Shown: positions 16,481 to 49,619 of the stretch, piece after piece
How the letters are laid out: every line of letters starts with the position of its first letter
How positions within the stretch are numbered: the stretch's first letter is position 1
Assembly: GCA_961205875.1 (NCBI GenBank)
Contig: OY540815.1
Location: forward strand, 14,135,638-14,199,637
Source: Sialis fuliginosa
Lineage: Eukaryota > Arthropoda > Insecta > Megaloptera > Sialidae
Direction of reading: 5' to 3'
DNA length: 64,000 bases
Notes under the pieces: model-generated
Seen by the model: only the letters and a program-made list of their open reading frames with translations
Told to the model about the DNA's origin: nothing
The model's database searches: none
Made by a program: the position numbers and the translations under genes

Positions 16481-16486
16481 ACTTAC

Positions 16487-16512
16487 CAAAATAAAACAAA
16501 ATTTCAGCTTAC
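16487..16512 (-). other. Recursive splice site (ratchet point) candidate 1 with 26-nt RS-exon
   Basis: Read on the minus strand, the sequence runs TATCTTTATTTTTTACAG then directly GTAAGCTG. This is a strong 3' splice site fused to a strong 5' splice site at the 16512/16513 boundary. A TCAATTAAT branch-like element lies upstream in transcript sense. A second 5' site, TTTTG then GTAAGT (plus-strand 16481-16486), lies 26 nt further on and would close a tiny recursive-splicing exon. Ratchet points subdivide long introns in flies. The 26 nt have stops in two frames, so a protein-coding microexon is unlikely. Confidence 0.6.
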
Positions 16513-16729
16513 CTGTAAAAAATAAAGATATTAATTGATTCATTCATTTTTTAAAAATATTGTTCTTTAAAAATACAAATTAATCAAACTGGGTTTAAAA
16601 TATATAAATACAAAAATTTTATATTCCTTTTATCTATATGAAAAGAAGACTCAAACTGAAACTGTTCCTTCAGTGAAAGAACATATACAAATTATAAGTA
16701 ACAACAAAATATGTACAAACTCGTGTTCA

Positions 16730-17010
16730 TAAAAGATGGAAAAACAAATAGTGGCTAAAAGGCAAAACGATGTCATTCAAAAGACACTGCGAGCCGTATG
16801 TAGTAGAGACTATAAACAAAACTGTCTAATATCCTTGCTTCAAACATCGCGCATATTGCCGTCGGGAAAAACGGCGTATGACGACAACAAAAACCACCGC
16901 AAAGACATGGGCGGTCACGTGGGTTGAGTGAAGGGGCGGGGGTAGGTTGAGGAGAATCGAGCAGTTTTGTGCATTCGTCGTAGGCCAGTGTATGCTGGAA
17001 TGTTTTCAAA
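16730..17010. promoter_or_regulatory. Complex patch, candidate regulatory module
   Basis: It has balanced base composition unlike its flanks. It contains GTCACGTGGG (CACGTG E-box), AAAACCACCGCAAAG (Runt-like AACCACCGCA), TATAAACAAAAC (forkhead-like) and GGGGCGGGGGTAGG. Frames on both strands cross it without a domain. An enhancer is an inference from motif content. Confidence 0.3.
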
Positions 17011-17019
17011 AAATATATA

Positions 17020-18574
17020 CGAATAAGATGAAATTTTGAACCAGAAGAAAGTGGTTTTATCTTTGAGTCGTTTTCAAAAACCAAAACAATTAAGTACAGT
17101 TAACAAATATTCGATCAATCGATACTTAATAGAGACTTACTGAAGTGCTTCACTAATCAAGTGCCAAATTATTTTAAAGATGTTTTTTGTAAAACACAGT
17201 TTAGAAATCACTGATATAAGCACAATTGCCGATGTCTTCGTTCAAAGATATTGCGCGAAAAGAAATGTTTGCCGAACGACAAAACTAAGCGAACCCTGTC
17301 ACTTGTATTGTATTGTACCTACATTGTGATGTGCAATATGTTTAATAAAGAAGGAATTGAAACCTTTAATCATTAGATTAGATTGAAGAAATACGTAAAA
17401 TATGCTTTTTTATTGAAACATAAGAAATATACCTACTTATATATGCTGGACATTACAAATGAAAGTTCTTATAAAAGAACATCTTTAATTCATAAAACAC
17501 GACTAAAAATAGTGCATGTTTATAGAAGTGGAAAACTTAAGAATAAAAATCGATTGATAGTTCCTAACATGAGGGTACAAACTGCATTAAAAGTTCCTTT
17601 TAAATAGTTTGTGAAACGATTTTTAAACGTTCGTAATTTCCTGAGGAATGTTCCGCATGGATGGCTGCTTTCATATTAAAAGTTTTAGAATCAGCATGAT
17701 CTCTAATAGATTTGAAGATCATATAAAGAAAAAAAATCTGTAACATTCGTTTTATTTCTAAAGTTTATCAAGTACGTGTTCTTATATTTAAATTAAAATT
17801 ATTTCTGATATTAAAAGTCTAATAAAACAGAAATGCAAACATCTTATTATTTTAAATTATCACACCTCTAAGCCATATATCACCATTCATTGTTAAAAAA
17901 AAGATAAAGAAAACAATTTACTCTCGCGTCTTAACAAACAAGTATTTCGTGAAAATGAAACCGTTTCCGCATATCGTTACACAAAATGGAAAAACAAAGG
18001 TGAGGAAGAGGGAGATTGAGAGCTAGAAAGCACAGACATAGCGCGACTATCCCATTAATTTCGACAAGTTGGCATAAATCAATGTTGGCCAAGGTGCTGA
18101 TAAAAACAGATCTGATGGATGGTTCCTAGACTGATACTGAACACTGTCTTTACAGATATATACCTGCTGAGTTTTATGTACTCCTGTTACTTTTTCTGAT
18201 TAAATTCACTACACTGTGAATTTTATCGTCCTGATTTTAATGTCTTCTCGAAAACAGTTTTATTGCTTGGGTGTATAAACAAACGATGTTTACGAAAATT
18301 TCAATTCCTTTTTTTGTATGATTCCAAAGCACATTGAAGAAAGATATACAGTGAGACTTCTCTAAGACGACCACACTTAATTTCAAACAAAAGTGGTGGT
18401 AATATAACTGAATGACAAAAGGAATAATAGTTAAAAAGTAGTTTTACAAATTACCACGCATAAAATAAAAATTTCGAGAGGTTTAATTGTAGATAGTTGT
18501 ATTCATATTTGTTTGCACTGACATTATAGTAGTGTTCATTTGTAATACTGATTTTTGATTAACCAATTATATGA
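17020..18574. other. AT-rich non-coding stretch
   Basis: No gene is seen. A 74-codon plus-strand frame at 17383-17607 shows no motif and is Lys/Tyr-rich, as AT-rich noise usually is. Confidence 0.3.
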
Positions 18575-19171
18575 ATACTAGCTGTTACCCGCGACTACGT
18601 TCGTGTGAAATTTAGGTTAGGTAGGAGCTGTCATACATAAAACCCATAGACAAGTAGAATTGGACAGCGCAATCAGCATTTTAAGATGGTCGACAAGAGT
18701 GAGAGAGATGGAAATGGTTTAAACCACGTTCTATCTCTCTCTACACAGTGTCGTAATATTTCTTTTTTCGGAGCCTGAGCAGACAAACAAATTTTTCACA
18801 TGCGAAATCTTCTATACTACTCTATACCATATCGTATGTAATTAAAGTTCAAATCAGAAGTTTTAAATAAAAATTAGAAAGTCAAAAGATTTAAATATTT
18901 ACTACAATAATAATAATTACAAACTTTTCTACTTTCTTCCTTAAAAAAATATTATTAAATCCTACATGTCTATGATAAAACCCATGAAAAGAAGAAGAAG
19001 AACGTTAGGTAATACAGATATCCGTTATGATAGTTGATAGTACCTTATGTCCTTCCTCAGTATGCAAGCTATCTCCCTGCTAAATTTCATCAAGATCGGA
19101 TCATCGGTTTAGCCGTGAAAAGGTAACAGACAGACATACTTTCACATTAAATTTATAATGTTAGTATGGAT
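18575..19171 (+). repeat. RTE/SINE-like dispersed repeat
   Basis: Begins ATACTAGCTGTTACCCGCGA with CTACGTTCGTGTGAA. It ends with TTTCATCAAGATCGG, TTTAGCCGTGAAAAGGTAAC, CAGACAGACATACTTTC and ATAATGTTAGTATGGAT. Both ends are hallmark sequences of a very common insect (especially lepidopteran) repeat type, known from memory. The 5' ATACTA and 3' TAGTAT are also inverted. No reverse transcriptase frame is present. Confidence 0.7.
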
Positions 19172-19309
19172 AAATTACATTATCTGATAGTTAGGTTTTA
19201 TAAAAACTGAAATACCGGTATTTTTATATGTATTTAATGTATGGAATAATTTACTACTAATAAATAACTGAAAAAAATAGAGCACAATTTCCAGTGTACT
19301 GCCAAATTA

Positions 19310-19520
19310 AGGTGGTAAATGTCGACAATCCCTTAAATCTTCTATACGTGGGGATGGGGGTGGTGATGTTTAGGTGGAAATGGTTACGAGGAAGTCAGAC
19401 GATGCAATGCATCACTGTGTGACCCGGGCACATGGACAGATTGCGTGTGGACACAGATAATACCGCATGGCCGTCGCGCACGTTTGTCGCGAGGGTCATC
19501 TGATGTATGGATAAAATGTT
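19310..19520. promoter_or_regulatory. Complex GC-richer patch, candidate regulatory module
   Basis: Contains GTGGGGATGGGGGTGG, GATGCAATGCATC (palindromic core), ACCCGGGCACATGG, GCATGGCCGTCGCGC (with a Pho-like GCCAT core on the complement) and GTTTGTCGCGAGGG. No frame spans it. The function is inferred. Confidence 0.28.
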
Positions 19521-19898
19521 CACATTGATCGGTACTTTATAAAAACATAGTACAAGCCCATTTTAATAATATAACTGATTCATTATAAACAAATATTCAT
19601 TTTTTTGTTATCAAATATTTTTTTGTTTTGCAAATGTATCAGCAGTGAAAAACATGTGTAGAAAACGTTATGGAAAAAATATACAATCGAATAAGATACG
19701 AAAAAATAACATAAGAGAAAATACAAGGTATTAGAAAAACTTCCTACCCAATTACCCAACGAACTTTTTATATTTTATTTACAAAAAAAATGATTACTAT
19801 TTTTACACCGTCTCGATTCAAACTCTCTCCTATGTAACAGGCGCATACATATTACATATACACACACATATGGGTGTGACAGCATGTAGTGATGTGTA

Positions 19899-19913
19899 TG
19901 TGTGTGTGTGTGT
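19899..19913. repeat. (TG)n microsatellite
   Basis: Short TG run preceded by CACACACATATGGGTGTG, so it can pair partly with the upstream CA-rich segment. A GGGTGGGTGGGAG run follows. Confidence 0.85.
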
Positions 19914-19949
19914 TAGGAAGGGTGGGTGGGAGTAAAAGGGAGAGAGGGT

Positions 19950-22480
19950 TAGACACGCAATCATTAAAGTGATTTCATGTACCTTACCAATGCAATAGGT
20001 CGTTTACGCTAAAGAAAAAGGCTGTAAAGTTGATTTTAGTGTTAATAAATATTGATAAAGAAATTTATTAACACTTTGCGTTGCGAAAATGAATATATTG
20101 TCCTGAATTGAGGTGTAGTTAAAACGGTTTTGTAGACCTATTAAATGTGATGGACTAATTTTAAATCTTCTCACATTTACTCGTTTCTAAGAAGATTAAT
20201 TTTATTATATTTCTTTTTTTAGAACACATATTTCAATTAACTTTGCATTTGAACTGCAGTTGATTACTGTAGTTGAACATTATGTTTCAATTCTTCTCGG
20301 CTTTTCTCCCTTAGTGATAAAATGACACCTTAATTAAAAATAACAGTAAATATTTTATAGTTGAGTGATTGACTCATCAACACTCAGACAAAACATCTGA
20401 CCTGTGAAATTTTAAAGATATCGTAGGGAAACAATTATTCGTAATTTATCTCTTAAAGTGGGAGGGGTGGTGGAGTTAATATTGAATGAATTTAGGATAT
20501 TTCAAACTTGAATAATATGAGTAAAAACAATACAAATGGCATAAGATTTTAGAAATTGTATGGAAATGTTTAAAACGCGGAAAAAGCTGCTGGTGGGTTG
20601 CTAATACCTTATAATATTTTCACTTATAAAATAATAAATCCAATTAAAAAATAAATAAAGATATCAAAGTACCCACATACAGACATTTGATAAAAATAAT
20701 AACGATAATATCATAAATAAATAATTAGTGACTAAAAAAATGAATTACAAACGACATGTATATTTAATGTTGATATACCAACGACTGTCACGTTCTCTAC
20801 CTGCAGATGTCATTAATAAATAATATCTGCGGAATTCGCGTTAAACATTGCTGACAGTGAAAAGTAGTTAGCATGAAAATAACTCGGGATCGTGGGAGTA
20901 AACGAAATACAACATTCGTGTTCTATTTTTACAGTGATTAATATTTCATTAAATTTAATATATTTATATACAAATACAAGCTCGGTTGTAGAAATAATTA
21001 TGGAAACAAATCACCGTGAAAATAGATGGCTCCTAGTTAGAACACGTATATCCTTCATATTGGTTTTCACGGTTAATGTTTTGTAGCTTGGTATACAAGA
21101 AAATATTATTTAAAATAACGATTTTTAATAGGGAATAACACAAATAGAAAATCTTGTAGATATTAATTAGATTTGATCGAATTAAAAAATCTTGATATGT
21201 AAGAATACTGACAGAAAACAATTTTTTTAAAATTTACTATCATTAATAACTACTCGTACATAAGAACAATACAATATTGATATACAGTGTGTCTCAGGAT
21301 AGATGTTACAAGAGGTGTAATGAACAAAATTTTTCGAATTTCTGTATATGATCTGTATGATACGTCGCTTTACAGGCAGCAAAACAACATGTTTTTTTTT
21401 TTAATTAAACACTTCGTATTTAAAAATGTATAAGGTTCGTTGCAATGTTGTCAAAAAAACACCGTGTTGCTGTTTTGTCTCTTTGGTCTAAACACGGGAT
21501 AATTATCTGTTTGTTAGTTCCGACTAAAAACTACTAAGCCGATTTTGATGGACTTTTACTATTCGAAAACTTAAGAAACTAAAATGTGTATAAGCTATTC
21601 AGTAATCGATATTAAATATTAGGGCATGCCTGTATCAAATTGATATTTTTAATAAAAAATCTTAACTATACATTTAATCATTTCGATCATACAAGAAAGA
21701 AAGAAATAATTTAGATTACATCTATCAATGTTATATAAATCAAACAAAAATAAATTACATTATTGTAAAGCATAATTGCAAGAATAAAGTTCGTATTAGG
21801 TATGTGTAGATCAAAACAGTCACCAAAATACAGTTTACAGTTGGAGGCAGTGCTAATATTATTCACTTGTTTGCTTGTAACTTTATTCGTGGGGATGCGA
21901 ATAATACGTCGGATTATGAGACATATCTCTATATTACATATTAAGTGTTTGACAAATAACAATGATGTACTGTAATTAATATTTTCTCTTCGCGATGTTG
22001 ACAAACAATGAGCATTGTATATTATAGAACGACACTAGTTTTTTTTGTTTCTTTTACTGTAGCAATTTTCTTTTGTGGCATCTTTTTTACAATTAATTTC
22101 TTTGTTCCTTTGTTTACATCGTAGTCATGATTTGATAACGAGTTTTATAATAAATCTTAGATGTAGTTATGTAAACTAATTCCATTTGATTTGTATTAGA
22201 AGATTAAGATAGTATAGTTATCTTTTTAATATGGGTCATCCTGTATATTAATCATATCATTATAACAGAAATAATTAACATCTTGTTCTAATAAGAGCAC
22301 GCATTTACAAAAACAATCCTAATATTTATTCAACAGAAACTGTTAAAACACGACGAACTTTCATTAAACAACATTATTACTGATGAGTTAAAATCCATAA
22401 AACAAAACATAATTTACGCATAATTGTTTGAAAGTTATTAATATAGTACTCTATTGGAAATTCATACACCGGAAGTGAAG
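19950..22480. other. AT-rich non-coding stretch with repeat-end fragments
   Basis: No gene. ATACAGTGTGTCTCAGGATA at 21283 and GGGTCATCCTGTATATTA near 22233 are inverted in sense and resemble 'CAGGGTGTCCCA' repeat ends, so a roughly 0.95-kb old element is possible. AAACTACTAAGCCGATTTTG at 21527 is a reversed retroelement-tail phrase. Confidence 0.3.
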
Positions 22481-22489
22481 TGGATTTAT

Positions 22490-22840
22490 TGTTGTGATTA
22501 TAAATAGCATGCCATTACCGAAAAATAACAGTGTTGAACATTAGCGCGGGACCCTTCGGTTACTGGAGCTTATAAAAACTTTACTGGTATTGTGGAGGTT
22601 TTGGATAAACAGCAAGTAGAGGAACTGGAAGTCAACGGTCCGGTGACCATTAATTATGGAACAGACGACAAATTAACGTAGTGTGTCGAGGGCGGCGCCT
22701 TGTCCAACCTCCCTCCAGGGGGTTAGTTAGTGAGGGTCAGCCAGCCAGCGACATATGCGGCAACGGTAGTGATTTAATAGCACCTTTTTGCGCTGCACCT
22801 CTTGAGTGGCCACTTCGTTACGCACTCTGATTTCATAAAC
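22490..22840. promoter_or_regulatory. Complex GC-richer patch, candidate regulatory module
   Basis: Holds GCGCGGGACCCTTCGG, TCAACGGTCCGGTGACC, GAGGGCGGCGCCTTGTCC, AGCCAGCCAGCGACATATG and TTTTTGCGCTGCACC. Codon-like evenness is seen near 22560-22680, but stops interrupt all frames. A regulatory role is inferred from composition only. Confidence 0.28.
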
Positions 22841-22992
22841 GCTACAAAGAATTATCTTACTGCTAAATTAATATGTCATGTGATGATTTTGTATTATTGT
22901 ATCTACATCTGCCAACATTTTTAATTCATGATATTGCTATGATACATTGGTTAACGTTGCACTTAATACTTACATACATAGGTTATATCATT

Positions 22993-23141
22993 TGAGGAAG
23001 TGAGTTCCAAAACTCGTTCCTTCCATTTTAAAAAAATAATCGAGATGCAGTGGATTTTGAAAGAATTTTTGGCATTCTTTTAAAATCCACGGCATCTCTC
23101 TTTTTAAAATGGAATAAACGAGTTTAGAACTCACTTCCTCA
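22993..23141. repeat. 149-nt near-perfect hairpin
   Basis: The left arm TGAGGAAGTGAGTTC pairs with GAACTCACTTCCTCA, and the pairing continues inward through AACTCGTT, CCATTTTAAAAA, GAGATGC and TGGATTTTGAAAGAAT to a 7-nt TTTTGGC loop. Each arm is about 70 nt with scattered mismatches and small bulges. It could be a foldback miniature transposon, a hairpin-RNA (endo-siRNA) source, or an oversized miRNA-like precursor. No known miRNA seed is recognised. Confidence 0.85.
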
Positions 23142-24288
23142 TTTGAATTATAAAGTTTTTGGGTTGTTAGGTTGTTTTATAGGCACATGAAACAAAAACT
23201 ACTAAACTGATATTGATTAAACTTTCACTGTTACAAAGCATAATACCATAGAATTATATTTTAGTATAAATGTTAGTTGATATACTGCAGACTAGTACTT
23301 ATTAAGGAAAATAAAAAAAATAGTGCGACTGTGTATTGTTAATTTTTGTCAATCCAATTAATTAATATTTACAAACGTAATCATGAACATACAATTTTTT
23401 ATTTATTTATAATATGAAGTTTTTCACTAATCGAGATCTATAATTTGAGACCAAAATCCGCGTGGTAGCTGCTCTGAGTGTCGAGATATATACTGAAAGT
23501 AAATTTACGCCAGCGCGCAAACTGATCTCTGCGCGTTACATCAAGTTTCTGATCACCAGTATCTGGCGTGAAACACTTGACGATATTCACGTCAAGATAT
23601 ATATAAAAAAGTCTATATTTTTAGGGATTTTGAAATACACACAAGAAAATTCTATTGTAATAAATATAACATATACATATGTATAGTAGGTATATATAGT
23701 TACGAATAGGCTACAAAGCCAGATGCCCTATGTAGAACATCATCACGAGCAAAACAAACAGCACACATACAAACAAATTATATCGGGGCTTGTGTCACTG
23801 AAGACACACCGTCATAAATTTGAATTTTGTGCACACAAATTAACCATCAAAGCAATACGTGGACGCCGTCTTGCATGAGAATGATGTGGAGAAGCCGAAT
23901 CGACAGCACCATCGACCCCTACAACTTCCCCCAAACAAAACCACCCGTCGTGCGGGGTTGTGTTATTTAAATTAGCAACAACATGATAAGACAAGTTTCA
24001 GCGTAATATACTGCCTCCATATACATATTATGTGTATACGTATTATCTAATGAAGATATACTTTGAAATGAGATAGTGGTTGAGTAAAGGAAATACCTCG
24101 TTCAGTCTAACAAACTCGAGCAAATCTTTTGTGTCTTTGTAGTGTGCGTGTGTTTATTCAATATGAATATTTGGTACGACAAAGATAAACTTAACTCTAA
24201 TGAAATTTGGAATATTATTGATATAAATGAATGAAATATTTCGATAAGTTTGGAAATAACATTTAATATTTTCAGTATAGTTACATTT
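23142..24288. other. AT-rich non-coding stretch with moderately complex patches
   Basis: Patches at 23460-23580 (CAGCGCGCAAACTGATC, TCTGGCGTGAAACAC) and 23780-23960 are more complex. No domain is seen in the short frames crossing them. Confidence 0.28.
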
Positions 24289-24980
24289 ATTAAATACTAG
24301 CGCATTGGACTCGGTGTTACCCGGGTTAATATTCACAAAATCATAGTGACCTAAAATATTCAACATGCCCACAACACACGGTTCACTGCGAATTGTTCTT
24401 TTTCCTAAACCTAACCTATCCATTAGTGAAAACCGGAATGAAATCCGCTCAATAGTACTGAGAAAATCGTGTAAAATTATATTTTCAAACTTCACGGGAA
24501 ACACCTTAGATTTTATATGAAAATCAAAATAAATAAATAGGTTAGCAACAATCATAATCAATTTCGATATTTTACTGTTCTTTATATTTCAATTTTCAAT
24601 CAATATATTTCAAAATATTTAATTGTGACATGTGTCAAAGTCATGTAATTGTTCGACAAAATATTTGAAAGAGACGTGATCACAGTAACCTAAATAAAAT
24701 AAAATATTGAAACCGTAAATTATAGAATTCTTTATTTCAACGCTACTATGTTTTTATATAAATGACAGTTGTATCTGTGTCATCATGGAAATAAAACACG
24801 ACTTGATGAAGATTTATTTAGTCTTTTGATGTTAAATCTTAGGTTTTCATAAAATTTTAATAGCCACGAACATATACAGAAAAATATTTATCTATTGGTG
24901 AAAAACGCATTGAAATCGCTTCAGTAATTCCCGAGTCTATAAGCCTCATACAAACGAACATTCATTTTTATATATAATAA
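24289..24980 (+). repeat. Retroelement-like repeat, family A, copy 3 (longest)
   Basis: The 5' block (ATACTAGCGCATTGGACTCG, GGTGTTACCCGGGTTAATAT) matches copy 2. The middle (24400-24770) is absent from copy 2. The 3' block from 24820 (TGTTAAATCTTAGG..GCATTGAAATCG) matches copies 1 and 2. A 135-codon minus-strand frame, the longest in the window, runs through it; its best-looking part is antisense to the conserved 5' block, so it is not a gene. Confidence 0.75.
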
Positions 24981-27580
24981 TAATAATTTTTAAATAGGTA
25001 TTTAATGACAGTAATTTCAAAGTAACTGTATTTAAATTTCAGGTAGTTTAACATAAATCTTTGATCTCTAGTTTGATACAATATAAAAATTCAAACTCAA
25101 AAAGCGAAGTAAGGCTCAACAAATTAATATAAATCTTTCATCCGTATGAAATATAATAAATGAAAATTATAAATATGAGTGGTCTTGGTTATTAATGAAT
25201 CCTTAAAGCTTCAGGAAGGGACTGGATGAAGAATTGCGGTTTTACCACACATGCAAACAATGGTGATGGCGGTATGTATACAAGAAGGTAGCGCTCTGGA
25301 TCCGCGATAATACCGTCTTTAAATTAACGTTTATAAACTATTTAGATTTTTTTTTTAATATTAAGCTTCTTGCAATTATAGACTAGAACAAGAGTGGGTA
25401 AAAATTATTTACTTATTATTTCATCTGGGGAAAAGAAAACTCGAACGATAAAAAACGACATCAATTATTAGGAAATTAAAAATTTTGAGGTGAAAAAGTT
25501 GAAAGGTGGTAAATTCTAAAATGAATAAAAAATTCTCAATCAAATATGGCCCGTGGACTGATTTTTGTGCACGCCTGGCTTGAATAATTTTTTTCTTCTG
25601 TTATAGGTACGAAGTATGATGCAAAATAGAATTTGAGTAAAATTATTTTATAATTTGTTTATTTTTGTGGATAAATTGTTAAAAATAAAAAGTAAACAAT
25701 AAACTAATATTTTCAACGAATATTACTAATACTTCTAATTACTAACATTAGTAACAACATGGTGATTAGTTTTGTTATTTTCATAAACAATTCATGAATT
25801 ATTTATCATATTTCCTCCCATCTTGGTTTGATCAGCTCAGAAGACATCATGTATGTATATATACATGCATATGTATGTACATACATATATCCAAACTAAT
25901 CTTGACTCAAAACAAATTTAATCAAACATATAATATATTATAACCCCAATTTATAGGTACTAACCGTACACACCGGTAATTCAGAACTCTGCTGGAGTTA
26001 CTGACATGGGACCAAACAACCCCCTCCCCCCAGTCAGTATCAACAATGCACAAAATACAAAGACAAAAACCGTTGGTATTCTCTTGTAGTACCGTGTGTA
26101 GTCATGTATAATGATGAACTTCCATGTATATCTTGATGCTCAGTTATGCTGCTTACTACAATTTATTGTACATGATGAATGGCGCGTAAACATTCTACGT
26201 AATTGTTTTCGCGTAGGTACTATATTTTATAAATTATATGTTAACCTCGGATTCACGTTTTTGGGAGAGTTAAGATGTTGGTAAAAATAAATCAACTGTG
26301 ATGTTTTAGTTTTACAGAATCTGACCGAATTATAATTTTTTTTAAATAATAAAACCTATTATAGGGGGGTATTAAAAATAATAAATAAAATTATTTATAT
26401 AAAATTTTTACTCATAATGTACAAAGTAAAAAGTTTATTAAAACACGATGACAAAATCCAAATCTGAAAAGTTCCAATATCTGACAACAAATAACATCCA
26501 TGTTAAAATATCAATAATTCAGAAATCATAAATATTTAATATTTCACACTCCGAACACAAAATCCGAGTGAAATATAAATATAGAATGTGAAATTGATTT
26601 AGAGATTTAGATGATGATAAAGCTGGAAATATATAAATAAGTAATTACACTTCGTTCGATCGTACTGCTCTGAAAAATCTGATAAAGCAAAATATTTAAA
26701 TATTAATTTTTATAAAAAAATACAAGATATTTCAATTTTCGTATATAAGATTATATTTTATAATATTAATAATATTTCGAGTGCGAGTCGAGCTTCGTGT
26801 ACTAGTGTCACGTACCGTATGTTTTTTTTTCAATATATTTACTATTAGCAAATTAAAGAATCACTAGTTATATTTAATAAGTCTTCATACATGTTCTTAT
26901 TCATTTTTCAGATTTTCCTCACTATATCTTTCGGAGAATATTTTTATGATTTAAAAAAAAAAAATATTATATTAGATATATATAATTTGTTAAAAGAAGA
27001 TTAAATTTTTTTTAATACCTTTTAATAAAAGGACTATATCTGCGGGGTTCTGGGCTTTATCTTTTTAAGCCAAATAGTTAATCTAGTATTGATTACCAGT
27101 AACAAAAACTTCCCTACACAAATTGGTATTAAAGGACTAACGAATAAACATAGAATATACAGAAAACGGGAAGAATTCTTTAGAAGTAAGGTATCTATTT
27201 ATAATGAATATAAGAAATTAATCCTGAAAAGTTTTAATAATAAATATTGATTGAAAGCATTCAAGTGAAGAGCAAAAAGGCACAAACATACATACACCAG
27301 TAATTTCAATAAAATATTTCATAGTAGAGAAATTTTATTGGAAACACATACACATTCACAAAGTACATCCATCAAATTTGGACGTACATATATAGCTTGT
27401 TTCAGTTCAAAGGGTCGTCATATCGAATGTAGTAGCATCCACTTTCAAGCCTTGCAATAGCAACAGTATATACGTGGTCCAAATAGGATAAAACATCAAA
27501 TCAGTGGCGGAACATGTGAATGTTCTTTTATGAAAAAACAAAATAAATTTTTCCTTTTTTTTTCAAAACACGTGTCTCTT
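24981..27580. other. AT-rich non-coding stretch
   Basis: No gene. Moderately complex patches lie at 25200-25320 and 25960-26230. A CATA/TATG palindromic microsatellite lies at 25850-25890. CAGTGGCGGAACATG at 27504 looks like a hAT terminal repeat without a visible partner. Confidence 0.28.
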
Positions 27581-27584
27581 GTAA

Positions 27585-29830: not shown

Positions 29831-29982
29831 TATTTATCAATAACATCATATAGGTCAGTTAACAAAACTGTTGATTTGTGAAGATAATATTTGCTTTCTC
29901 AACGGTACAAAGACAAAAATAATAATTTGATGAAGTCAGTATATATTACATATACGAGTAAGTTGTTTTATAAATGACTTAC

Positions 29983-30016
29983 GTGCTTCAGCCAATGTAG
30001 ATTGAAATTTACATAC
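29983..30016 (-). other. Recursive splice site (ratchet point) candidate 2 with 34-nt RS-exon
   Basis: On the minus strand TTAGTTTTTTCTTTGTTTCAG runs straight into GTATGTAA at 30016/30017. This combines a textbook polypyrimidine tract and CAG with a good 5' splice site, and TTAATTA branch-like sequence lies just upstream. A second, perfect 5' site, GCAC then GTAAGT (plus-strand 29977-29982), follows 34 nt later. The 34-nt segment is open in its first frame, but the length is not a multiple of three and it begins GTATGT, as expected for a zero-length-exon device rather than a coding microexon. Confidence 0.65.
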
Positions 30017-30049
30017 CTGAAACAAAGAAAAAACTAATTAATTACAAGA

Positions 30050-33000
30050 AAATGAATTACGATAAAAAGTACACATTCAAAAATCGTATTACAAGTATCT
30101 AACATTAAAACACATTTTTTGAAAAGATAATATGCTATTCGAACTCAATTTTTATCAATTTTAATAAAATGCCATCCCACACAATAAACATTTCCCTTCA
30201 AGAAAGATATATATTGATTTGTATAAAATACCAAGAAAACATATGTTCCAGCATGATATATTTGAAAAGATAAAATAACCGTGCGATTTTTATTTCTGTG
30301 CTTATCGGTAAATATTGAATAATGAAATAACTATTATATATTCATGTATTTATTAACATTTCGAACGAGGTACGCCGGTTCAATTGCTATACTCGAAGAC
30401 AGTAAAACTGAATTTATGTTCGACATTTAAGAAAAATGAAAGTTTCCAGGCAGTAAAATTTGATATATCGGCAAATCAAGAAGCGCGTTATTGCTGTTCT
30501 TTATAGTTGGCGTTATTGTTGAACAGTTCCTATTTTCAATGTTGAACAGAACAAAGATATGAATTTTTTTATATAAATTTATTAACAAAAAGCAATTTGA
30601 AAAACATAAATAAAACACACTTAGTCTATTGTTATTTAATACGAATGACTGGGCATAAACTAAGAGACAAATTGGTTCACGAAAGATGCAAAGATATGAA
30701 GAAAACCGATTTAGACGAGTATTCGATATTATTAAACTACTTTTTTTAAATACCTTATAACAAATCGAAATTTAAAATACTTATAAAGAATTGAGAGTAA
30801 TATAAAAGCAATGGAAAATATATTTTCCTAGAAAAACACAAGTAAAGCTTGATATATTGTAAATTGTATTAAAAACAATAACAATTCAACAACATTGTGA
30901 ATAATAATAAGATCTGAATGTAAACACAAAACAAATACAATAAAATATATCATTCAACAAAAGAATTATGTACGTATGTGAATTTGTATAAAATTCCACA
31001 TAATAAAGATGTCTGATATTTTAACGTAGGTATGACAGACTAGTATGTATAGGTATTATTACCATATAAAGTAAAAATATGATTATGCAATATAAATTTA
31101 ATGTGAATATTTGCAAGCTTGGATATTGCATATTGAAAAAAGATACATAATTAGTAAATAAGGGACTAGCTCCCCAAAATATTTAACCTTACTTTGTGCA
31201 GGTTTACATTTTTATTAGAAAATATACATTTGTCTGAATACGGACCTGGTATAATATTTAATATTAGTAATATAATATAGCCTTAACAAAATCTATAGAG
31301 TCTTCAGCTTTCTAACAATAAAAGTCCCATCAAAATCGGTTTAGTAGTTCTCGTATCAAGAAGGAACAAATACACATACACACATTTTAAAAACTCAAAA
31401 AATTACATCGTGCAAATAGAGCCTACATATTTATATATTAATATTGATTATAAATAAATAAATAAATAAGTGAATGGTTTCGTTTACTGATTTTTTTTAA
31501 ATTAGTCGTATTATCTTCTGAACGGCTTGCATGAATAGGTACCACATCACAAAAATCACATACCATATTTGCAATCAATTACGAATAACAATAACATTAA
31601 TCATTGGAGTATTATTTTCATTCTAACCCCATTGACTGATTTCTCGTGCCATTAAACCGGAGCAAAGAACAATATTCGTGCAGAGGCTCGGCTGCAATAT
31701 GTGCAAAATCAACACTGATTAACAATTCCATCTCATTTTCTATTGTCCTCCCTTACGTCGAATGCATACAAGCAATTTATAAATTCGTTGTCAATGTATC
31801 AATGCAAGTTTAAATTCCATAATGTTCGTTTGTGTGTATGTGGTTTATACGTAGATATAATATAAAAATACGTGCTTTGAACAAATGAAAATGTAGATTA
31901 AATTTATCTAAATATAAACAATAGCACCAATTATTGTAATATGAATCAAAATATCGTTAGCAAAAACTTTTATATAATTAAATATTCTAACCTACTTTTC
32001 TGTTTTGAATATAAAATAAAATAAATTTATATTTAATTATAATCGATTATACATATTATATACATATACGATTAACGATATTTTTCTGAAAAGCGATATA
32101 AATTGAACAACGATTTTGAATATATAAAATTGAGATACATAGTTATAAAACCTTTTTTATAAAGGATTTACTATGATGCAATTATTTTTGTAGAACTGTT
32201 TTGTTCCATGCAACAAAATATATGTATATTCTACATCAATTAGTCCGTTGATTTTTACAAAGCGTTGCATAAAATAATCGTATTATCATTTAAACGTTCA
32301 TGGCGAATTAAGCACTATAAAGCTCTCACTAAAACGCCACGATTTAACTTTATTTGTGCTTAAATTTGCACTAACTAAAACACATACCATTTATTTTACA
32401 GTAGAGATATTATTTTAATGAACAAGAATAGTATTATAAAATGTTTATTCAATTTTATACATACATTTAGTAAAAACTGCACATTATAATTATTTGATGA
32501 ATAAGGCACTTATTGTTAGTTAAAATACATATATATTGTTTTGATAGAAACAACATATATTTTAGCGAAATCTTTTATACATTAATTATATACATACATA
32601 TGTATTTGTATATGTATATAAAAAAAAAACATAATAAATTCAAACAAATTATGCCAATAACATTTTCCTTCCTATATCAATTCCTAGACAGGTTTCAAGT
32701 TAAAATTGGATTTACCGATTTGTACAGGGGTATGTAATTCGTTATCACTTTTTACTTCTGGATCCCTTTGCAATAGGACATTTGCATACACATAAATTAT
32801 TTCATTTAGTTCAGAGATGTATCTCACTGTTTCAACCCCCCTCTTCGCGCTGTTTTTACTGTACACAAATTTGATAGTGTTTTGTTACTGTTCAATTGCT
32901 TTACGTCTGTTACGATATGACGTAATCATTTAAATGTTAGTTATATAATTTCACGTATGTTGATTGTGTGTATGCGTATTTAATCAATGGAGTATGTCTT

Positions 33001-34600: not shown

Positions 34601-34985
34601 CAGTGGCGCCTAAATAGGGAAACCCCTTGAAACATGGACACCTCAAAACTTAGAACCCTGTAAGCATTGATAGCTTATTGAAAAATGAAACAAATTGCAT
34701 TGCTCAGTAGTGGTATGCTTGCCTGTCACGCGGGCGGCTCGGGTTCGATTCCAGGCCGATGCATTACGTATGATGCTTCTGCTCTGCTTAAATGGACAAA
34801 GTCTGAGATACCCGGTCCATTTCGTAGAAACTGGAGAAACTGCTAAATTCCCAATGACAGAGACAACTTTCGTAAACTTAAATAGAACTGGGTTGCTGTC
34901 AAGGGGGTAAGGCATAAACGTCGGAGGTAATACAATGGGCTTATGGCCTACGTGCTTGCGAAAGCCAGAGCGATCGCCTTTAAAG
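34601..34985 (+). repeat. Composite repeat with hAT-like start and tRNA-derived head
   Basis: CAGTGGCGCCTAAATAGG at 34601 looks like a hAT terminus. A tRNA-like segment (34697-34763) follows, then a body of about 220 bp with normal complexity up to GCGATCGCCTTTAAAGG. The tRNA-like head plus unrelated body is the plan of a tRNA-derived SINE. A right partner for the hAT-like end may be GACCGCCACTG at 35280-35290; the flanking 8-mers match at only 5 of 8, so the link is weak. The overlapping frames on both strands here are by-products. Confidence 0.4.
34697..34763 (+). pseudogene. tRNA-Gly-derived pseudogene with GTC (Asp) anticodon
   Basis: GCATTGC opens the acceptor stem and GCCGATGCA closes it (six of seven pairs, one G-U). 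The anticodon arm is CTTGC, loop CTGTCAC, then GCGGG. The T loop is GGGTTCGATTCC. Overall it matches the body of insect tRNA-Gly(GCC), but the anticodon reads GTC instead of GCC, the D arm is about 4 nt short and its stem is broken, and the T stem has one mismatch. Total length is 67 nt. A functional tRNA is unlikely; it is a pseudogene or SINE head. Confidence 0.8.
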
Positions 34986-35277
34986 GACGCAGAGAAATTA
35001 GTAAAACTCGAAACTCATTAAATGGAAAATACTTGTATAGGAGACAGTTATTATTATAACATTAGCATTTTATTGATATTTTGTTTAATATAAAAGCAAA
35101 AAGTAATTAAAGATATGTTTATTGTTTATGTTATTCATTCATATTCAATAAGACCAGTGAGATAAATGTTCTGTTCTCGATATAAAATATCAATAGACAC
35201 TAATTTCTATACACATAATTTTATTTAATGCTTGTAGATATGTATTATATTAAACTACATTGTAATAAAATTTTCGA

Positions 35278-41770: not shown

Positions 41771-41773
41771 ATT

Positions 41774-43079: not shown

Positions 43080-43410
43080 ATTCGTATCACACGGACGACT
43101 CCCACTATACGAGAGAACAAACGCGCGGTATAATATACGGTACGACACGGTGCTGCTTATTACGAACGAAAGAAACACAGTCTTGCAACGGCTGCTAGCG
43201 TATGCGAACTGGGGAGCAATGAATTAGGATCCTACAGTCCTCATTATCTATCCCGAGACAGCAACTACCACATTGGAGATGATAAATCTACCGATCATAT
43301 TAACAATTTATTTTCATGATGTGTTCGGATTATTGCACGCCTCTGTATGTAGGGTGGTTGGGGGGGGGGGGAATATGTGTGCCGTTTCACGATGATGTCA
43401 GAATTAGCTA
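43080..43410. promoter_or_regulatory. Complex patch ending in a G12 tract, candidate regulatory module
   Basis: Complex, CpG-containing sequence (ACGCGCGGTATAATATACGG, GCAACGGCTGCTAGCG, CCACATTGGAGATGATAAA) runs to a 12-G homopolymer at 43360-43371, the longest G run in the window. No frame spans it. Confidence 0.3.
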
Positions 43411-43419
43411 ATTGTATAA

Positions 43420-44135
43420 ATTAGTCGTGTTTAGGAAAATTGGTTGATATGACATTACGAATATTCGCTTAATCATGCGATGAGGAAACTGTTTTGATAT
43501 TTTCATGAGATAATTATTGAAATATGTATGTGAAGTAATGTACATACTATGGGTTTCAGAAGTCGTCTGTCGCCGTAAAGTTCAGAATCGCTTATAACAA
43601 AAAAATATAAATATCTTTTTCTAGGGCGGAGCTTATACAGTTAAATCATTTTAAATATTAATTTCATTAATTAATATTATATCAAGTTTAACATATTTAA
43701 ATACTAAAATTCGGAATATAAAATATTTATTGCCACAAAATTTATACATACAATTTTGAGTAGATTACATATAATTTAATCGCACAAATATATATGAGTA
43801 CTATAAACAAAGAATACTTCTTTATCTAGCAAAATAGTTTCAAAATATCTGTCTTTGTTCGGTACATGTAAAAATGATTAAAATATTATAATAATCAATC
43901 ACGTGAATTTGAATGAAAACTGGACGACCACTTCTGCATTTTACTGTACGTATGTTTTTAAACATTATTCTTTCCATAAATTGCCCTAGATTATGTTGAA
44001 TAATAAATGTAGAATCACATAAGTATTTTATTTATTTTTGTTGAAGAAATTTAATCAAAAGAAATTACACAGTATATATTAAATTATATAACATGCCACA
44101 AAATCTCAATATCCAGATTAAACTCCGGCACCATT
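43420..44135. other. AT-rich non-coding stretch
   Basis: Nothing recognised. Confidence 0.28.
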
Positions 44136-44139
44136 TCAC

Positions 44140-44465
44140 CAAATTTCCCCACTTGAATCTTTCTACAAACATAACAGTCGATTGAACCATATTCTCAAAA
44201 TGCGCACACATTTTGCGGAGTTAATTTTCTTCAACGCTAGTTAATTTTAGCGAATATTGTTAAACGCGGTTTCATTATCGTTTATCGGCGACACGCCCAA
44301 GGGCATTTCACATATTTCAAATCAATATAGCTGTGCTTATCAAAGAGATAGCTAGGTAGGTCACACGGCGAAGACATTGGAGAGAGATATAGGGAAGGGG
44401 CGCGCTCACGAAATCTGGCTTGTTAATAACCCGCGACTAATTACGTTACCTATTTGTGTACTTGC
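44140..44465. promoter_or_regulatory. Complex patch, candidate regulatory module
   Basis: Contains AATGCGCACACATTTTGCG, GCTAGTTAATTTTAGCG, TATCGTTTATCGGCGACACG, GGTAGGTCACACGGCG (with an AGGTCA nuclear-receptor half-site-like word) and CGCGACTAATTACG. Composition differs from both flanks. Confidence 0.3.
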
Positions 44466-44475
44466 GCATGTATAT

Positions 44476-44790
44476 TGTATATACAGGTGATTCAATATAC
44501 AACATTTGACTAAGTTGTACGGAACTGAGAAAAGTATTGATTGTAAGAAAGACGTATAAAATATAAAATTGTGTTTATACAGGTTGTTCAAGAAAAGCAT
44601 GATAGTCATAGGGATTCTGAATTTTTTTTTAATATGTACTTTTTGTTTCCGGTTTCTTAAGAACTTTTTATGTAGAATTGATTGGCGTATTTAGAATTTG
44701 TATATTACTTCTAGTTTCTGAGTTATAGGCCCTATTTTCGCATTCATGTGACGTCATATATGAAAACACTTCAAGTATTTTGAAACGTCC
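44476..44790. repeat. Fragments of 'ACAGG(G)TG.TTCA'-type dispersed repeats
   Basis: TATACAGGTGATTCAATATA (44480) and TATACAGGTTGTTCAAG (44576) are two related starts about 97 bp apart. TGACGTCA at 44749-44756 is a perfect CRE palindrome near the far end. Similar starts are common at insect retroelement and DNA-element ends. The class is not resolved. Confidence 0.4.
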
Positions 44791-44799
44791 TTAAGCGAA

Positions 44800-47450
44800 C
44801 GCATCATAAAGTATATATGTATATATAATATATATTAATATTTTACCGTTTCTCGCACGCCACTGCACCCCTCAACAAACGAGTATCGGATAAAAATGAA
44901 TGCAAGGGAAATTAGTTGCGGATGCGTGGAACAGCATCGGTCAAAACAATACTCGGCTGAGTGAACAGTTTGTTAGTTTGTTTCATGTTTCATTACAAAA
45001 TCAGTGTGTCTTCAATGCCGGTGCCATCAATCTTAATGACCTGACCGCTGAAGCAAGAACCCCCTGGTACGCATATATTGCTTCATCCCCTAAACAACTG
45101 TTGGTGTAATCCGCAAGGGATGATGGACGGCATTTTTATGCATGCACCTTTTTACCAAATCGATTATATACAACAGTGCGGTTGAATTTTTCATTGATTT
45201 GAACAATGATTTAGAATCTTTGTTAATTATGTCAATCATTATTAATGTTTCAAACAGCTAAAATACCTAAAGCTGATCAAACTTGGGTACTTGTCTATTA
45301 TATCCCCGGCATTTGCAGATGGCAAGTGACATGAAGTGTATTTGATCAGCGCCAATGTGTTTTTAGTATGTACTATTAATTTCAATATTTTTAAATAGAT
45401 AATTATTGTATATTCGGTTTTTATTTTCGAAAACTGCAACTTGGTTAGGGCAATCTATTGGGGCGAAATCGGTTTGGTTAGTTTTTGTTCGGTTAATATT
45501 AAATAATAAATATTTAAAATAATAGTATACACTTTACTCACATTGATTACATCTTTTAATACATGAGACTTGCACATCTACAATGCCGGGTATATAATAG
45601 ACAAGTACCCAAACTTGATAGATGTTGATAAAAGAGTGACAATATAAGATTTCAAGAACTGTTTTATCAAATATACAAATAGCATTTTTAATTTTGGTTT
45701 AATTAATGTTAAATTTAAAATTTTGTTCGTGCAAGCAGTATCAATATTTTATATGAAATTGTACGTTGAAATTAGTAATTTGGACACAATGAGAAGGTTC
45801 TTTCTTTAAATGATATTTTCTTCTTATATTCAAATTACTAAGTACAGCTATTTCTGCGATGCTAGGCCTACGTATTGCCTCATTACGTTTTATATTACAG
45901 TAGTCTGTAAGCGCGCAGGGAGGCCTGAACAAATGTAAAACGTACCAGATAAAATATTTAATTTTGCGTGTAGATTATTTATTTAATTACAACTACTTTT
46001 CTCTAGCTTTCAACATTTTTTTATACTTTATATTTATTCAGACAATTTATTTCCATATTTAACATTGGTGACCCGAGAAAACTAAGAAGCATTAATATCC
46101 TGGAAAAGAAGAATATTTTTATTGTTTAGTGAAACTGACATGAAGAAAGATTCAAATTATGAACATCTATTTTTATAATTTAATATCGACGGAAACTAAT
46201 TAAACGATTGAAAGATATATAGCATTTCCTTTTCCTGAAAATCTTTATTCGTTAAACATCATCGATATTTGTTTCCTGACTGCACCACGGCATCTAAAGC
46301 CCGCAGCACCGTTATGCGTCTATTCAAGCGATTCACAACTTGAAAATTTACTTCATGTTTCTTTTTCTTCTTCAATTTTAAAATCGTGTGGATACTTTGG
46401 TTACATATTTCTATGCACATTTACTTGCGAGGGTTATGACATGTATACTTTTTAAATGATATATATATTTTGTATTACTATATTCTATATACGTTGGGTT
46501 TTATAAGTAATATAAGTAATACATATAACAACTGATTAAAAAAAAGAAAATTATTAGAATTATTATTTTATAATTAATTCTATGCATAGAGTAATTACAA
46601 CGACTCACTTATTTATATCTATATATTTTATTAAAATTATTTTTAAAAGAAAACAGACAGTTTCTAGAAACATTTATTATGTACATAATAATAAAATTTT
46701 GTAAAATAATGTAATACGGATTGTACTACATATTTTATAATTCCTTCTCGCTAACATTTAATTTAATTCTCATTACTGTATTATTCTGTACTTCTGAGTA
46801 CAATGAGAAAAGAGATTATTTATAGATAACGAATATATAGTTGCTAATGGCGAACACGATATTTATTTATGTACAAACAATATATATACATTTGCAATTC
46901 AAAAATAAATAATTAAATTCAAACAACACTAAACACTTTTAAATCCCAAGCATTAACAAAAACAAAATCAATACAAAATAGCATAGTTCTGGTTTAAACG
47001 GCAAATATTCAAATAGACAATTATTTTCAAATGCATGAAAATAACAAACACAAAAAATACACAACGTTTTCATTTAAAATCAAATCTCTCCTACATCTGC
47101 TATCCATTTCGTATATACAGCAGACAAACAAACGAAAAAACAACAACGAAAAACTCGTACTTTTCTGATAACATAGATTCGCTTGTGCATCGAATAGTAA
47201 CCAATATTGCAACGATTTCCATCTATAAACTGATCTGTGCACAGTGCATTGCATAAACGTAGGTATTCCAAGTACCTTTGTACATACTATATATGTAGTA
47301 TGTACATAAGTACATACATACATTCAATACTTATAATATAATTGTATTAATGTAGTGTGTGATGTATGATATTCTATATGTACTAATAAATTAAATTCGC
47401 TTTAAACTGTTTGCTACTTGCATAGGATATATAAGATTTACGGATTATCC
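44800..47450. other. Mostly AT-rich non-coding stretch
   Basis: A 69-codon plus-strand frame at 44900-45109 has balanced composition but no recognised domain, and no splice context supports it. Around 45240-45620 two stretches share an idea (ACTTGGGTACTTGTCTATTA at 45281 and, reversed, TAATAGACAAGTACCCAAAC at 45595), an inverted pair about 310 bp apart that may mark ends of an old element. Confidence 0.3.
45278..45616. repeat. Inverted pair marking a possible miniature element
   Basis: AACTTGGGTACTTGTCTATT (45280-45299), followed by ATATCCCCGGCATTTG, is the reverse complement of CAATGCCGGGTATATAATAG through CAAGTACCCAAACTTG (45581-45616) with few differences. Arms are about 35-40 bp. CCCGGCATT and AATGCCGGG are also paired. 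TGATCA lies left of the left arm and TTGATA right of the right arm. A miniature inverted-repeat transposon about 340 bp long is likely. Confidence 0.6.
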
Positions 47451-47452
47451 AT

Positions 47453-47486
47453 AAATCTATGAGCATAATTATATGCTCATAGATTT
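47453..47486. repeat. Perfect 15-bp hairpin
   Basis: AAATCTATGAGCATA (47453-47467) and TATGCTCATAGATTT (47472-47486) are exact complements around a 4-nt ATTA loop. Confidence 0.9.
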
Positions 47487-47598
47487 TATATATCGGGAAG
47501 TCGGAAAAATAATAGATATTCATAAACAAATGAAGTTTGTTTCAAGGTCTACTTTTTTATATGGTTGCAATATGTTGATAATAATTATATAACACTTA

Positions 47599-47885
47599 TG
47601 TCCGGTATTATAAAGGAGCTAGCAAATTTTCTAGCTAGCAAGCATTTTCAAATAAGATATCAAACTTATATGACAGTTCTTTTGGAGTTTGTTGAAGACT
47701 TTGACAAGTTTCGCGCACGAGTTGTAGGTAAATACCAACGGTATTAAAACAGTGGTGATATTATGAAAACTGTGTTACAATTAGTTGAAGTGTCACTGCT
47801 CTAAATTCCATAGCTAATCCATAGATACTAGTACAGAATTAATACCCCATTTGAAAGTGCTTGCTAGCTAGCATAATACCGGACA
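47599..47885. mobile_element. Miniature transposon (287 bp) with TTA target duplication, PIF/Harbinger-like
   Basis: The termini TGTCCGGTATTAT and ATAATACCGGACA are exact 13-bp inverted repeats. TTA lies on both sides (47596-47598 and 47886-47888), matching the 3-bp TWA targets of PIF/Harbinger elements. A second inverted pair lies just inside (GCTAGCAAGCATTTTCAAAT and ATTTGAAAGTGCTTGCTAGC). A 60-codon plus-strand frame (47565-47747) starts outside the left end and runs in; no transposase motif is recognised in it. Confidence 0.8.
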
Positions 47886-47888
47886 TTA

Positions 47889-49510
47889 TTGTTGTATTCA
47901 GGGTATATACAGGTACACAATAAAATGTAATTTAATAAATAATGTATGTAATATTTTCATACTCACAAAAATGTTTTCAAATTAAATCATAGTTATATTG
48001 GAATTATGATTAGTTTTACTCAGGAATTGATAAATTAAATTTCATGAAGAAAACAACAATTATGTCGAGAATTATTTACTGAATCAAAAAAAGCTCTCCT
48101 AACAGCAATTTTTTGGTTTTAAAATGTTCTAGGGATCAAGAATTTAAGGAAAAATCCGTCTTCCGTGATATTTTTTCACGACTTTTCCGGAAAATCGTCA
48201 TTTTTTCCTGTAGTTAGGTTTTTCGCGAATATTTCGACATCTACTTGATCAATATTGGCAAAAAAATAGGGTCTCTCGTAAGGAAATCTCCATTGATCTG
48301 TGGGTTGTGGAATACTATTACTTAATTTCTAACTTCAAAAAAATTACAAAGTGGGTTGAAGCTCTAAATTTGGGTATCTACATATATCAACTAGTATGTC
48401 CTATGGTCGAAATTGGACCAATATTTTACCTGCCTTAACGGAAAAATACACACATGATTTTTTTTACACAACTATGTACCTTTCGAAAGATATAAGTTTC
48501 ATTTACCTCTTTTTATAATAAATACTAAAAAAACGTACGACATTTTTCGATTTTCACGTATTAATATATAGATATGAAGTTTCTTCTAATATCAAGAACA
48601 AGGTGAATAAACTAGCTACTAACAGATTCATAGGAATCCTTTTCTGTGTATTTGAACAAATTCGGTATGTATTTGTATCGGTTCAGGTCGACGTTGTGTG
48701 AACAAATAACATTTCCTCCGGAAATCCCCGCGACTCTAAGCTCGACACGTTCCGCACCTCCTCCACAGCATCCAATCAAAACCCGCTGACGTGGTGGTTT
48801 TCACTCAAAACGTTGTTGTTGTTGCTCTGTTTTATTTGCGTCGTGCTGTTATTGTTAAAATTTCTCATTGCTGATTATATTTGTGAAAATATTAAACAAA
48901 ATGTTTATTGCGTTATTTTGTAGAATTTTATAAATGACGAATTAGGGTAACAACGGAAGTAACAGTATGCAAAATAAGAAAATAAACGGGAATATTATAT
49001 TACTGAATATTATTGATAGATGTCAGAACACCTTTTTAGCATTATGCTATTAATTTACTCTACAGTGGTATCACAATTTACATATCTAAAAACGATCTAA
49101 ATTATTTGAAAATAACGCTTAAATTATTTGCTAGATTGCATTTAAAAAAATTTAAATAAAAATACAATAAGAAATTAATAAACAACTAATTATTAATTAG
49201 AAAAAATAAGGAACTGTTCAATAACGAATAACCCCATAGAAAATACATATATTGATTTTTAATTTCAACATATGAACAGTTTTTAAACGAAACATGAAAA
49301 TATTCTTTTAACAACCTTTTCCTACTTTTTATAGCAAGTTATTACAATACCAAACCGTGTTGTTAATGTTATAAAAATGTTATCTAGATATAAAATGACC
49401 TTAGTCAAGAAAACATTTATTATTCGAATAGTCTAACTATACTAGTAATTAGGAAACTCTACATTACTTATTAAATTGAAATATAAAATATAATAAATCA
49501 ATATTGTTAA
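47889..49510. other. Non-coding stretch with an unassigned repeat-like part and a complex patch
   Basis: 48100-48470 has long A/T runs separated by words such as TCCGGAAAATCGTCATTTTT and looks like an old repeat, but no second copy is found here. 48690-48840 is complex (CTCCGGAAATCCCCGCGAC, ACCTCCTCCACAGCATCC, GCTGACGTGGTGG, then GTT repeats) and may be regulatory. Confidence 0.3.
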
Positions 49511-49520
49511 TGCAACTTAC

Positions 49521-49572
49521 GTGATATATATGTGTAACTGAATCTGTCTAAATTGATGCCAAAAGAACATAC
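49521..49572 (-). other. Recursive splice site (ratchet point) candidate 3 with 52-nt RS-exon
   Basis: On the minus strand TTGTTTCTCCTTTGTTACAG is followed immediately by GTATGTTC at 49572/49573. The tract is nearly all pyrimidine, and TATTAAT branch-like sequence lies upstream. A perfect 5' splice site, TCAC then GTAAGT (plus-strand 49515-49520), comes 52 nt later. The 52-nt segment is open in two frames but is not a multiple of three. It is the strongest polypyrimidine tract of the three candidates. Confidence 0.65.
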
Positions 49573-49619
49573 CTGTAACAAAGGAGAAACAAATATTAAT
49601 ACAATTATAGTTAAAATTT

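What the first reader, a model, noticed from the sequence alone, without database searches (positions are those of the whole stretch)
16481..49610. Three minus-strand ratchet points, each with a closely following GTAAGT: a recursive-splicing series in one giant intron
At 16512/16513, 30016/30017 and 49572/49573 a polypyrimidine-CAG acceptor is fused to GTAAGC or GTATGT, all on the minus strand. Each is followed by a perfect GTAAGT after 26, 34 and 52 nt. The three sit about 13.5 and 19.6 kb apart, similar to the spacing of ratchet points in long fly introns. The extra 5' site is the layout expected if the site is first recognised as a tiny RS-exon. Same strand, same architecture, three times, makes chance less likely, though no background rate was computed. 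Recursive splicing is established in flies and vertebrates; an example in this lineage may be undescribed.
Basis: partly seen in the sequence, partly recalled or inferred. Interest (0 to 1): 0.85.

Follow-up and report, generated by a model that had tools for sequence, protein, structure and literature searches.

The report
Three stepping-stone splice sites, giant intron
A 64-kb stretch of AT-rich, probably insect, DNA carries three well-formed "ratchet points", sites at which a very long intron can be cut out in steps, each followed by a tiny hidden exon; the mechanism is already known from fruit flies, so this is a good new example rather than a new kind of thing.

Summary
On the minus strand, polypyrimidine-CAG is fused to GTATGT, GTATGT and GTAAGC at 49573|49572, 30017|30016 and 16513|16512, with a perfect GTAAGT 52, 34 and 26 nt downstream. 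These are the three best fused sites of the strand (19.4, 18.2, 17.1 bits; next 11.6; best plus-strand site 14.2). In 4500 simulated strands a fused site of at least 17.1 appeared about 0.08 times per strand, never three times, and with GTAAGT within 60 nt three times in all. No self-match covers a site. No internal coding exon rises above reversed-sequence controls. T exceeds A on the minus strand. The would-be exons are not multiples of three, and in CAG context the ratchet donor outscores the exon donor, though not by hexamer alone. This fits the Drosophila ratchet-point/RS-exon model (PMC8605326). Best reading: three functional ratchet points in one giant minus-strand intron. RP-site enrichment in bee, beetle, mosquito and sea urchin was reported in 2009 (PMC2773006), so this is a new member of a known kind. 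Species, gene, transcription and conservation could not be tested.

The parts
49573..49612 (-). Ratchet point 1 (first in transcription order): branch-point-like TTAAT with its A 24 nt upstream (also TTAAC at 39), pyrimidine tract, CAG acceptor; last intron base 49573
   Evidence: (acceptor 12.32, best of the strand)
49521..49572 (-). Putative cryptic RS-exon 1, 52 nt, begins GTATGT (regenerated donor) and ends CAC
49515..49520 (-). RS-exon 1 donor GTAAGT
30017..30056 (-). Ratchet point 2: branch-point-like TTAAT with its A 22 nt upstream, pyrimidine tract, CAG acceptor; last intron base 30017
   Evidence: (acceptor 11.06, rank 5)
29983..30016 (-). Putative cryptic RS-exon 2, 34 nt, begins GTATGT and ends CAC
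29977..29982 (-). RS-exon 2 donor GTAAGT
16513..16552 (-). Ratchet point 3: branch-point-like TTAAT with its A 19 nt upstream, T-rich tract, CAG acceptor; last intron base 16513
   Evidence: (acceptor 9.15, rank 33)
16487..16512 (-). Putative cryptic RS-exon 3, 26 nt, begins GTAAGC and ends TTG; stops in two of three frames
16481..16486 (-). RS-exon 3 donor GTAAGT

Best explanation
The window lies within a very long intron (at least about 33 kb, possibly over 64 kb) of a minus-strand gene in an AT-rich animal, probably an insect. The three sites are recursive splice sites. As polymerase passes each one, the acceptor and the GTAAGT 26-52 nt downstream are recognised together as a tiny exon (exon definition). 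The upstream exon is spliced to the acceptor. That places the upstream exon's end against GTATGT or GTAAGC, a new donor, which outcompetes the GTAAGT and is spliced to the next ratchet point. The RS-exon and the next 13-20 kb leave as a lariat, and the mRNA keeps no trace. Shown: sequence anatomy, excess over chance, all on one strand, no detectable internal coding exon. Inferred: transcription, order of steps, skipping of the RS-exons, kind of organism.
For: Exact anatomy. Top three fused sites of the strand, above the plus strand and both reversed controls. Simulated background about 0.08 per strand, 0 of 4500 with three, 3 sites in 4500 with GTAAGT in reach (the order-5 model keeps hexamer counts, so it allows for GTATGT being commoner on the minus strand, 65 against 40). 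GTAAGT within 60 nt of all three by chance about 6e-7. A branch-point-like TTAAT with its A 19-24 nt upstream of each acceptor (common in AT-rich DNA, so only consistent). RS-exon lengths 52, 34, 26, none a multiple of three; ratchet donor stronger than RS-exon donor in all three in 9-nt context, as described for Drosophila cryptic RS-exons, about 50 nt and generally out of frame (PMC8605326, introduction). Best local alignment of sites 49572 and 30016 covers about 39 nt and ends at the donor, and no BLAST self-match at E 1e-8 reaches any of the three. T exceeds A on the minus strand in 28 of 32 bins after masking repeats and homopolymers (26 of 32 unmasked), Wilcoxon p about 5e-6, as expected of an intron sense strand (that expectation is recalled). 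No internal exon candidate beats reversed controls in total score (34.4 minus, 32.1 plus, controls 30.5 and 35.4). Twenty-two open frames hit no Pfam family at its cut-off.
Against: No RNA, no related genome, no gene name. Spacing (13.5 and 19.6 kb) exceeds the mean recursive segment of 9.1 kb in fly cells (PMC6110457). Two of three ratchet donors are GTATGT rather than the published consensus GTAAGT (PMC2773006). By hexamer alone the RS-exon donor is the stronger (9.41 against 7.09 and 7.98), and it matches the recalled U1 complement at 6, 6, 6 of 8 positions against 5, 6, 5 for the ratchet donors, so skipping depends on how the unseen upstream exon ends; donor strength alone does not decide skipping in flies either (PMC8605326, passages). 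An AG 19 nt before the acceptor at 30016 falls inside the usual AG-free zone. The acceptor at 16512 alone is only 33rd of its strand. The AT skew has no genome-wide control, neighbouring bins are not independent, and GC skew shows no clear trend (19 of 32 bins). First and last exons were not modelled, and by coding score alone the best minus candidate (21.8) equals the best control (21.7).
Confidence: 0.87

Rival explanations
1. They are ordinary small cassette or poison exons of a minus-strand gene that happen to begin with GT, spliced in some tissues, without recursive use of the first GT.
For: Each has an acceptor, a short body and a full GTAAGT donor, and the GTAAGT is the better hexamer. 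In Drosophila some RS-exons are expressed (PMC8605326).
Against: All three begin with a near-consensus donor; of 8 YAG|GT sites with at least 65% pyrimidine on the minus strand only these three have a GT[AG]NG donor and only these three have a GTRAGT within about 120 nt. None is a multiple of three.
Confidence: 0.08
2. Chance matches in a large AT-rich intergenic region.
For: No RNA or conservation evidence. One reversed control strand holds one fused site with a GTAAGT 40 nt downstream at lower score (33701, sum 12.23). Single simulated strands (60 at each of three orders) reached 18.1, 18.3 and 19.5 for one site. The matrix and threshold were chosen by me after seeing the sites.
Against: 0 of 4500 simulated strands held three, and only 3 fused-plus-donor sites appeared in all 4500. 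The plus strand has none in the strict classes.
Confidence: 0.04
3. A dispersed element (transposon or satellite) that carries an acceptor and donor was copied three times in one direction.
For: The window holds several repeat pairs. Sites 49572 and 30016 align at score 40, above the 99th percentile (36) of up to 300 random pairs, though below their maximum (45).
Against: That best local alignment ends at the donor hexamer, the other two site pairs (27, 28) lie within the null (95% 31), and no BLAST self-match covers a site.
Confidence: 0.01

Closest known systems
Intronic ratchet points with cryptic RS-exons of Drosophila (Ubx, kuz, Bx and others; PMC8605326)
   Same: Fused acceptor|donor in a long intron, several per intron, same strand, short out-of-frame exon body closed by a downstream donor, ratchet donor stronger than exon donor in CAG context
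   Different: Here two of three ratchet donors are GTATGT, spacing is wider, and nothing is shown experimentally
RP-sites predicted in large introns of mosquito, bee, beetle and sea urchin (PMC2773006)
   Same: Fused sites in large introns, in excess over the complementary strand, outside Drosophila
   Different: That work counted fused sites; the passages I saw do not score a downstream RS-exon donor
Vertebrate recursive splicing with RS-exons (Sibley 2015, as described in PMC5126111 and PMC8605326; original not read)
   Same: RS-exon model, competition of two donors
   Different: Few fully suppressed intronic sites are noted in mammals (PMC8605326); this window is probably an insect

Membership tests
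Recursive splice site (ratchet point) | Acceptor motif directly fused to donor motif, AG|GT, at strength above background | tested here: met
Recursive splice site (ratchet point) | Lies inside a long intron, same strand as the gene | tested here: inconclusive
   All three on one strand; no internal coding exon above controls in 64 kb; AT skew fits minus-strand transcription; intron ends and gene not seen
Recursive splice site (ratchet point) | Splice junction reads, lariats or saw-tooth coverage | not testable with these tools
   no RNA data on hand
Recursive splice site (ratchet point) | Conservation of the AG|GT core above the flanking intron | not testable with these tools
   by their descriptions the collections open to me hold viruses, phages, plasmids and prokaryotes; the genome search did not complete; exact scans of viral contigs found 0; the other collections were not scanned
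Cryptic RS-exon | Donor a short way downstream (about 50 nt in Drosophila) defining a tiny exon | tested here: met
   GTAAGT at 52, 34 and 26 nt; chance about 6e-7
Cryptic RS-exon | Exon body generally out of frame | tested here: met
   52, 34, 26 nt; none divisible by 3; each has at least one frame without a stop
Cryptic RS-exon | Ratchet donor stronger than RS-exon donor | tested here: inconclusive
   Met with the CAG context (11.55, 11.55, 12.44 against 9.58, 9.58, 9.30); reversed by hexamer alone; the real context after step one is the unseen upstream exon
Cryptic RS-exon | Absent from mature mRNA | not testable with these tools
   no RNA data

The most novel reading that the evidence does not exclude
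Exon-defined recursive splicing, with the complete two-donor RS-exon layout, operates in long introns of a non-drosophilid insect lineage in which the ratchet donor is typically GTATGT and the RS-exon donor is the better hexamer. RS-exon skipping would then hang on the sequence at the end of the upstream exon, so that tissue-regulated RS-exon inclusion could be common.
Probability: 0.25. Interest if true: 0.55.

Novelty: new member of a known kind. Interest (0 to 1): 0.4.

Why it matters
If real, it shows from raw sequence alone that the fly-type ratchet point with its RS-exon donor can be recognised in an unannotated genome, and it gives three ready sites for asking how old and how general the exon-definition step of recursive splicing is. 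A strong fused site plus a near GTAAGT is rare enough (3 hits in 4500 simulated 64-kb strands) to serve as a genome-wide predictor of giant introns and of the strand of their gene.

Tried and rejected
Rejected: internal coding exons in the window (best total score minus 34.4, plus 32.1, reversed controls 30.5 and 35.4; first and last exons not modelled; 22 open frames, no Pfam family at its cut-off, lowest E-value 0.021). The 22 are the two longest frames and 20 others picked by length or coding-likeness out of the 684 of 36 aa or more, so most frames were not searched. Disfavoured: repeat origin of the three sites. No Rfam family reached its cut-off; the one ARAGORN 'tmRNA' is taken as a false positive in what looks like animal DNA. 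Poly(A)-signal strand counts (AATAAA 192 plus, 171 minus; ATTAAA 172 plus, 120 minus) were mixed and not used. Loose acceptor-donor pairing up to 250 nt is not enriched. Exact scans of viral contigs with three 26-29 base patterns found 0, as expected of a viral collection. Species and gene were not identified: GC 29% and CpG observed/expected 1.15 with the apparent intron size suggest an insect but do not prove it.

Papers: PMC8605326 abstract, introduction and passages; PMC6110457 passages; PMC2773006 passages; PMC5126111 passages; PMC8553928 passages. Not held, so not read: Duff 2015 and Joseph 2018. Searches bearing on other insects: (6 of 6 papers listed; 1 of 1; 9 of 9; 20 of 36), and three broad, poorly aimed ones, 23 (20 of 31,541), 31 (10 of 32,620) and 38 (10 of 2,669). 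In what was listed, PMC2773006 was the only paper whose title or abstract start treats ratchet-type splicing across non-drosophilid insects; most subscription journals are not in the library, so this is weak evidence of absence.
Full report
What was checked. The three junctions, hexamers and distances in the finding are exactly right. Read on the minus strand, in order of transcription, they are ttgtttctcctttgttacag|GTATGT at 49573|49572, tagttttttctttgtttcag|GTATGT at 30017|30016 and aatatctttattttttacag|GTAAGC at 16513|16512, with GTAAGT after 52, 34 and 26 nt.

More than chance. A generic acceptor-plus-donor weight matrix, typed from general knowledge after I had seen the sites, gives 19.41, 18.15 and 17.13 bits for the three. 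The next site on the strand has 11.56, the best on the plus strand 14.17, and the best on two reversed control strands 14.02 and 16.21. In 60 simulated strands at each of orders 1, 2 and 4 the single largest scores were 18.1, 18.3 and 19.5, so one such site can arise by chance. In 4500 further simulated strands (orders 2, 3 and 5, 1500 each, trained on the minus strand) the mean at or above 17.1 was 0.077-0.087 per strand; 14 of 4500 had two or more, none had three, and a fused site with GTAAGT within 60 nt occurred 3 times in all. The threshold was set at the weakest of the three after scoring. Without a matrix, YAG|GTA[AT]G with at least 65% pyrimidine occurs 3 times on the minus strand, 0 on the plus, 0 and 2 on the reversed controls; all 3 on the minus strand and 1 of 2 on the control have a GTRAGT within about 120 nt. 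With 9 other GTAAGT on the minus strand, three hits within 60 nt have a chance of about 6e-7.

Results that do not favour the reading. When any GT may follow YAG and 55% pyrimidine is enough, strands do not differ (31 minus, 29 plus, 28 and 35 on the controls), nor do the numbers followed by GTRAGT (3, 1, 3 and 2). Loosely paired exon-like sites are not in excess (minus 4 seen, 2.8 expected; plus 1, 2.1; controls 2, 2.4 and 6, 2.2). The acceptor at 16512 is only the 33rd best of its strand.

Not a repeat. No BLAST self-match at E 1e-8 covers a site. The best local alignment of the sites at 49572 and 30016 covers about 39 nt, from a branch-point-like stretch to the end of GTATGT; its score of 40 exceeds the 99th percentile (36) but not the maximum (45) of up to 300 random pairs. 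I take it as the shared splice signal. The pattern TTTGTTNCAGGTATGT with one mismatch allowed occurs twice, at these two sites, against 0.02 expected.

Surroundings. No internal coding exon candidate exceeds reversed-sequence controls in total score (34.4 minus, 32.1 plus, controls 30.5 and 35.4); by coding score alone the best minus candidate (10806-10925, 21.8) equals the best control (21.7). First and last exons were not modelled. Twenty-two open frames, the two longest and 20 others picked by length or coding-likeness from the 684 of 36 aa or more, gave no Pfam family at its cut-off. No Rfam family was found. On the plus strand A exceeds T in 26 of 32 bins of 2 kb, and in 28 of 32 after masking repeats and homopolymers (Wilcoxon p about 5e-6; neighbouring bins are not independent). 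That is, T exceeds A on the minus strand, as is usual for intron sense strands (recalled). GC skew shows no clear trend. The data fit a single minus-strand intron spanning the window, but its ends are not in view.

How it most likely works. In the Drosophila model the ratchet acceptor is recognised together with a downstream donor as a short RS-exon; [quoted passage not shown] The window shows the parts: short bodies of 52, 34 and 26 nt, none a multiple of three, and ratchet donors that outscore the exon donors in 9-nt context (11.55, 11.55, 12.44 against 9.58, 9.58, 9.30). A caution: by hexamer alone the exon donor GTAAGT is stronger (9.41 against 7.09 and 7.98), so the outcome depends on the last bases of the upstream exon, which replace the CAG after step one. 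If that exon ends weakly, inclusion of the RS-exon is a real possibility. In fly reporters donor strength alone does not fully explain skipping (PMC8605326, passages).

Compared with what is known. The layout is that of fly ratchet points with cryptic RS-exons. Fly recursive segments average 9.1 kb in one study (PMC6110457, passages); here they are 13.5 and 19.6 kb. Fused RP-sites exceed the complementary strand in large introns of fruit fly (21.7-fold), mosquito (over 10), bee (4.0), beetle (8.0) and sea urchin (8.2), against 0.9-1.5 in eight vertebrates (PMC2773006, passages), so occurrence outside flies is not new. In the listings seen (several capped) I saw no report of the RS-exon donor layout in a non-drosophilid insect, but coverage of the library is partial.

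Verdict. A true and well-supported set of three ratchet points by sequence, most likely functional, of a known kind. Open: species, gene, RNA and conservation.

Noticed in passing
50891-51466, 56094-56516, 61802-62332: A dispersed repeat of about 0.5 kb in three copies, 68-83% alike, the last in inverse orientation to the other two; probably an old transposon fragment.
   Followed up: no
4558-4925, 6148-6266, 6363-6523, 24285-24403, 24817-24989: Short repeats of 86-95% identity within 4.5-6.5 kb and shared with 24.3-25.0 kb, suggesting a more recent element.
   Followed up: no
34643-35014: Open frames of 123 aa (minus) and 73 aa (plus) over the same stretch, without a Pfam match; looks like a transposon remnant (impression only).
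   Followed up: partly
54094-54294 (-): The only other acceptor-donor pair on the minus strand at the thresholds: 201 nt between TTTTCAG and CAG|GTAACT; its end is itself a weak fused TTTCAG|GTAACT (sum 9.19). Within the number expected by chance.
   Followed up: partly
22646-23199 (-): ARAGORN tmRNA call, taken as a false positive in what looks like animal DNA.
   Followed up: no
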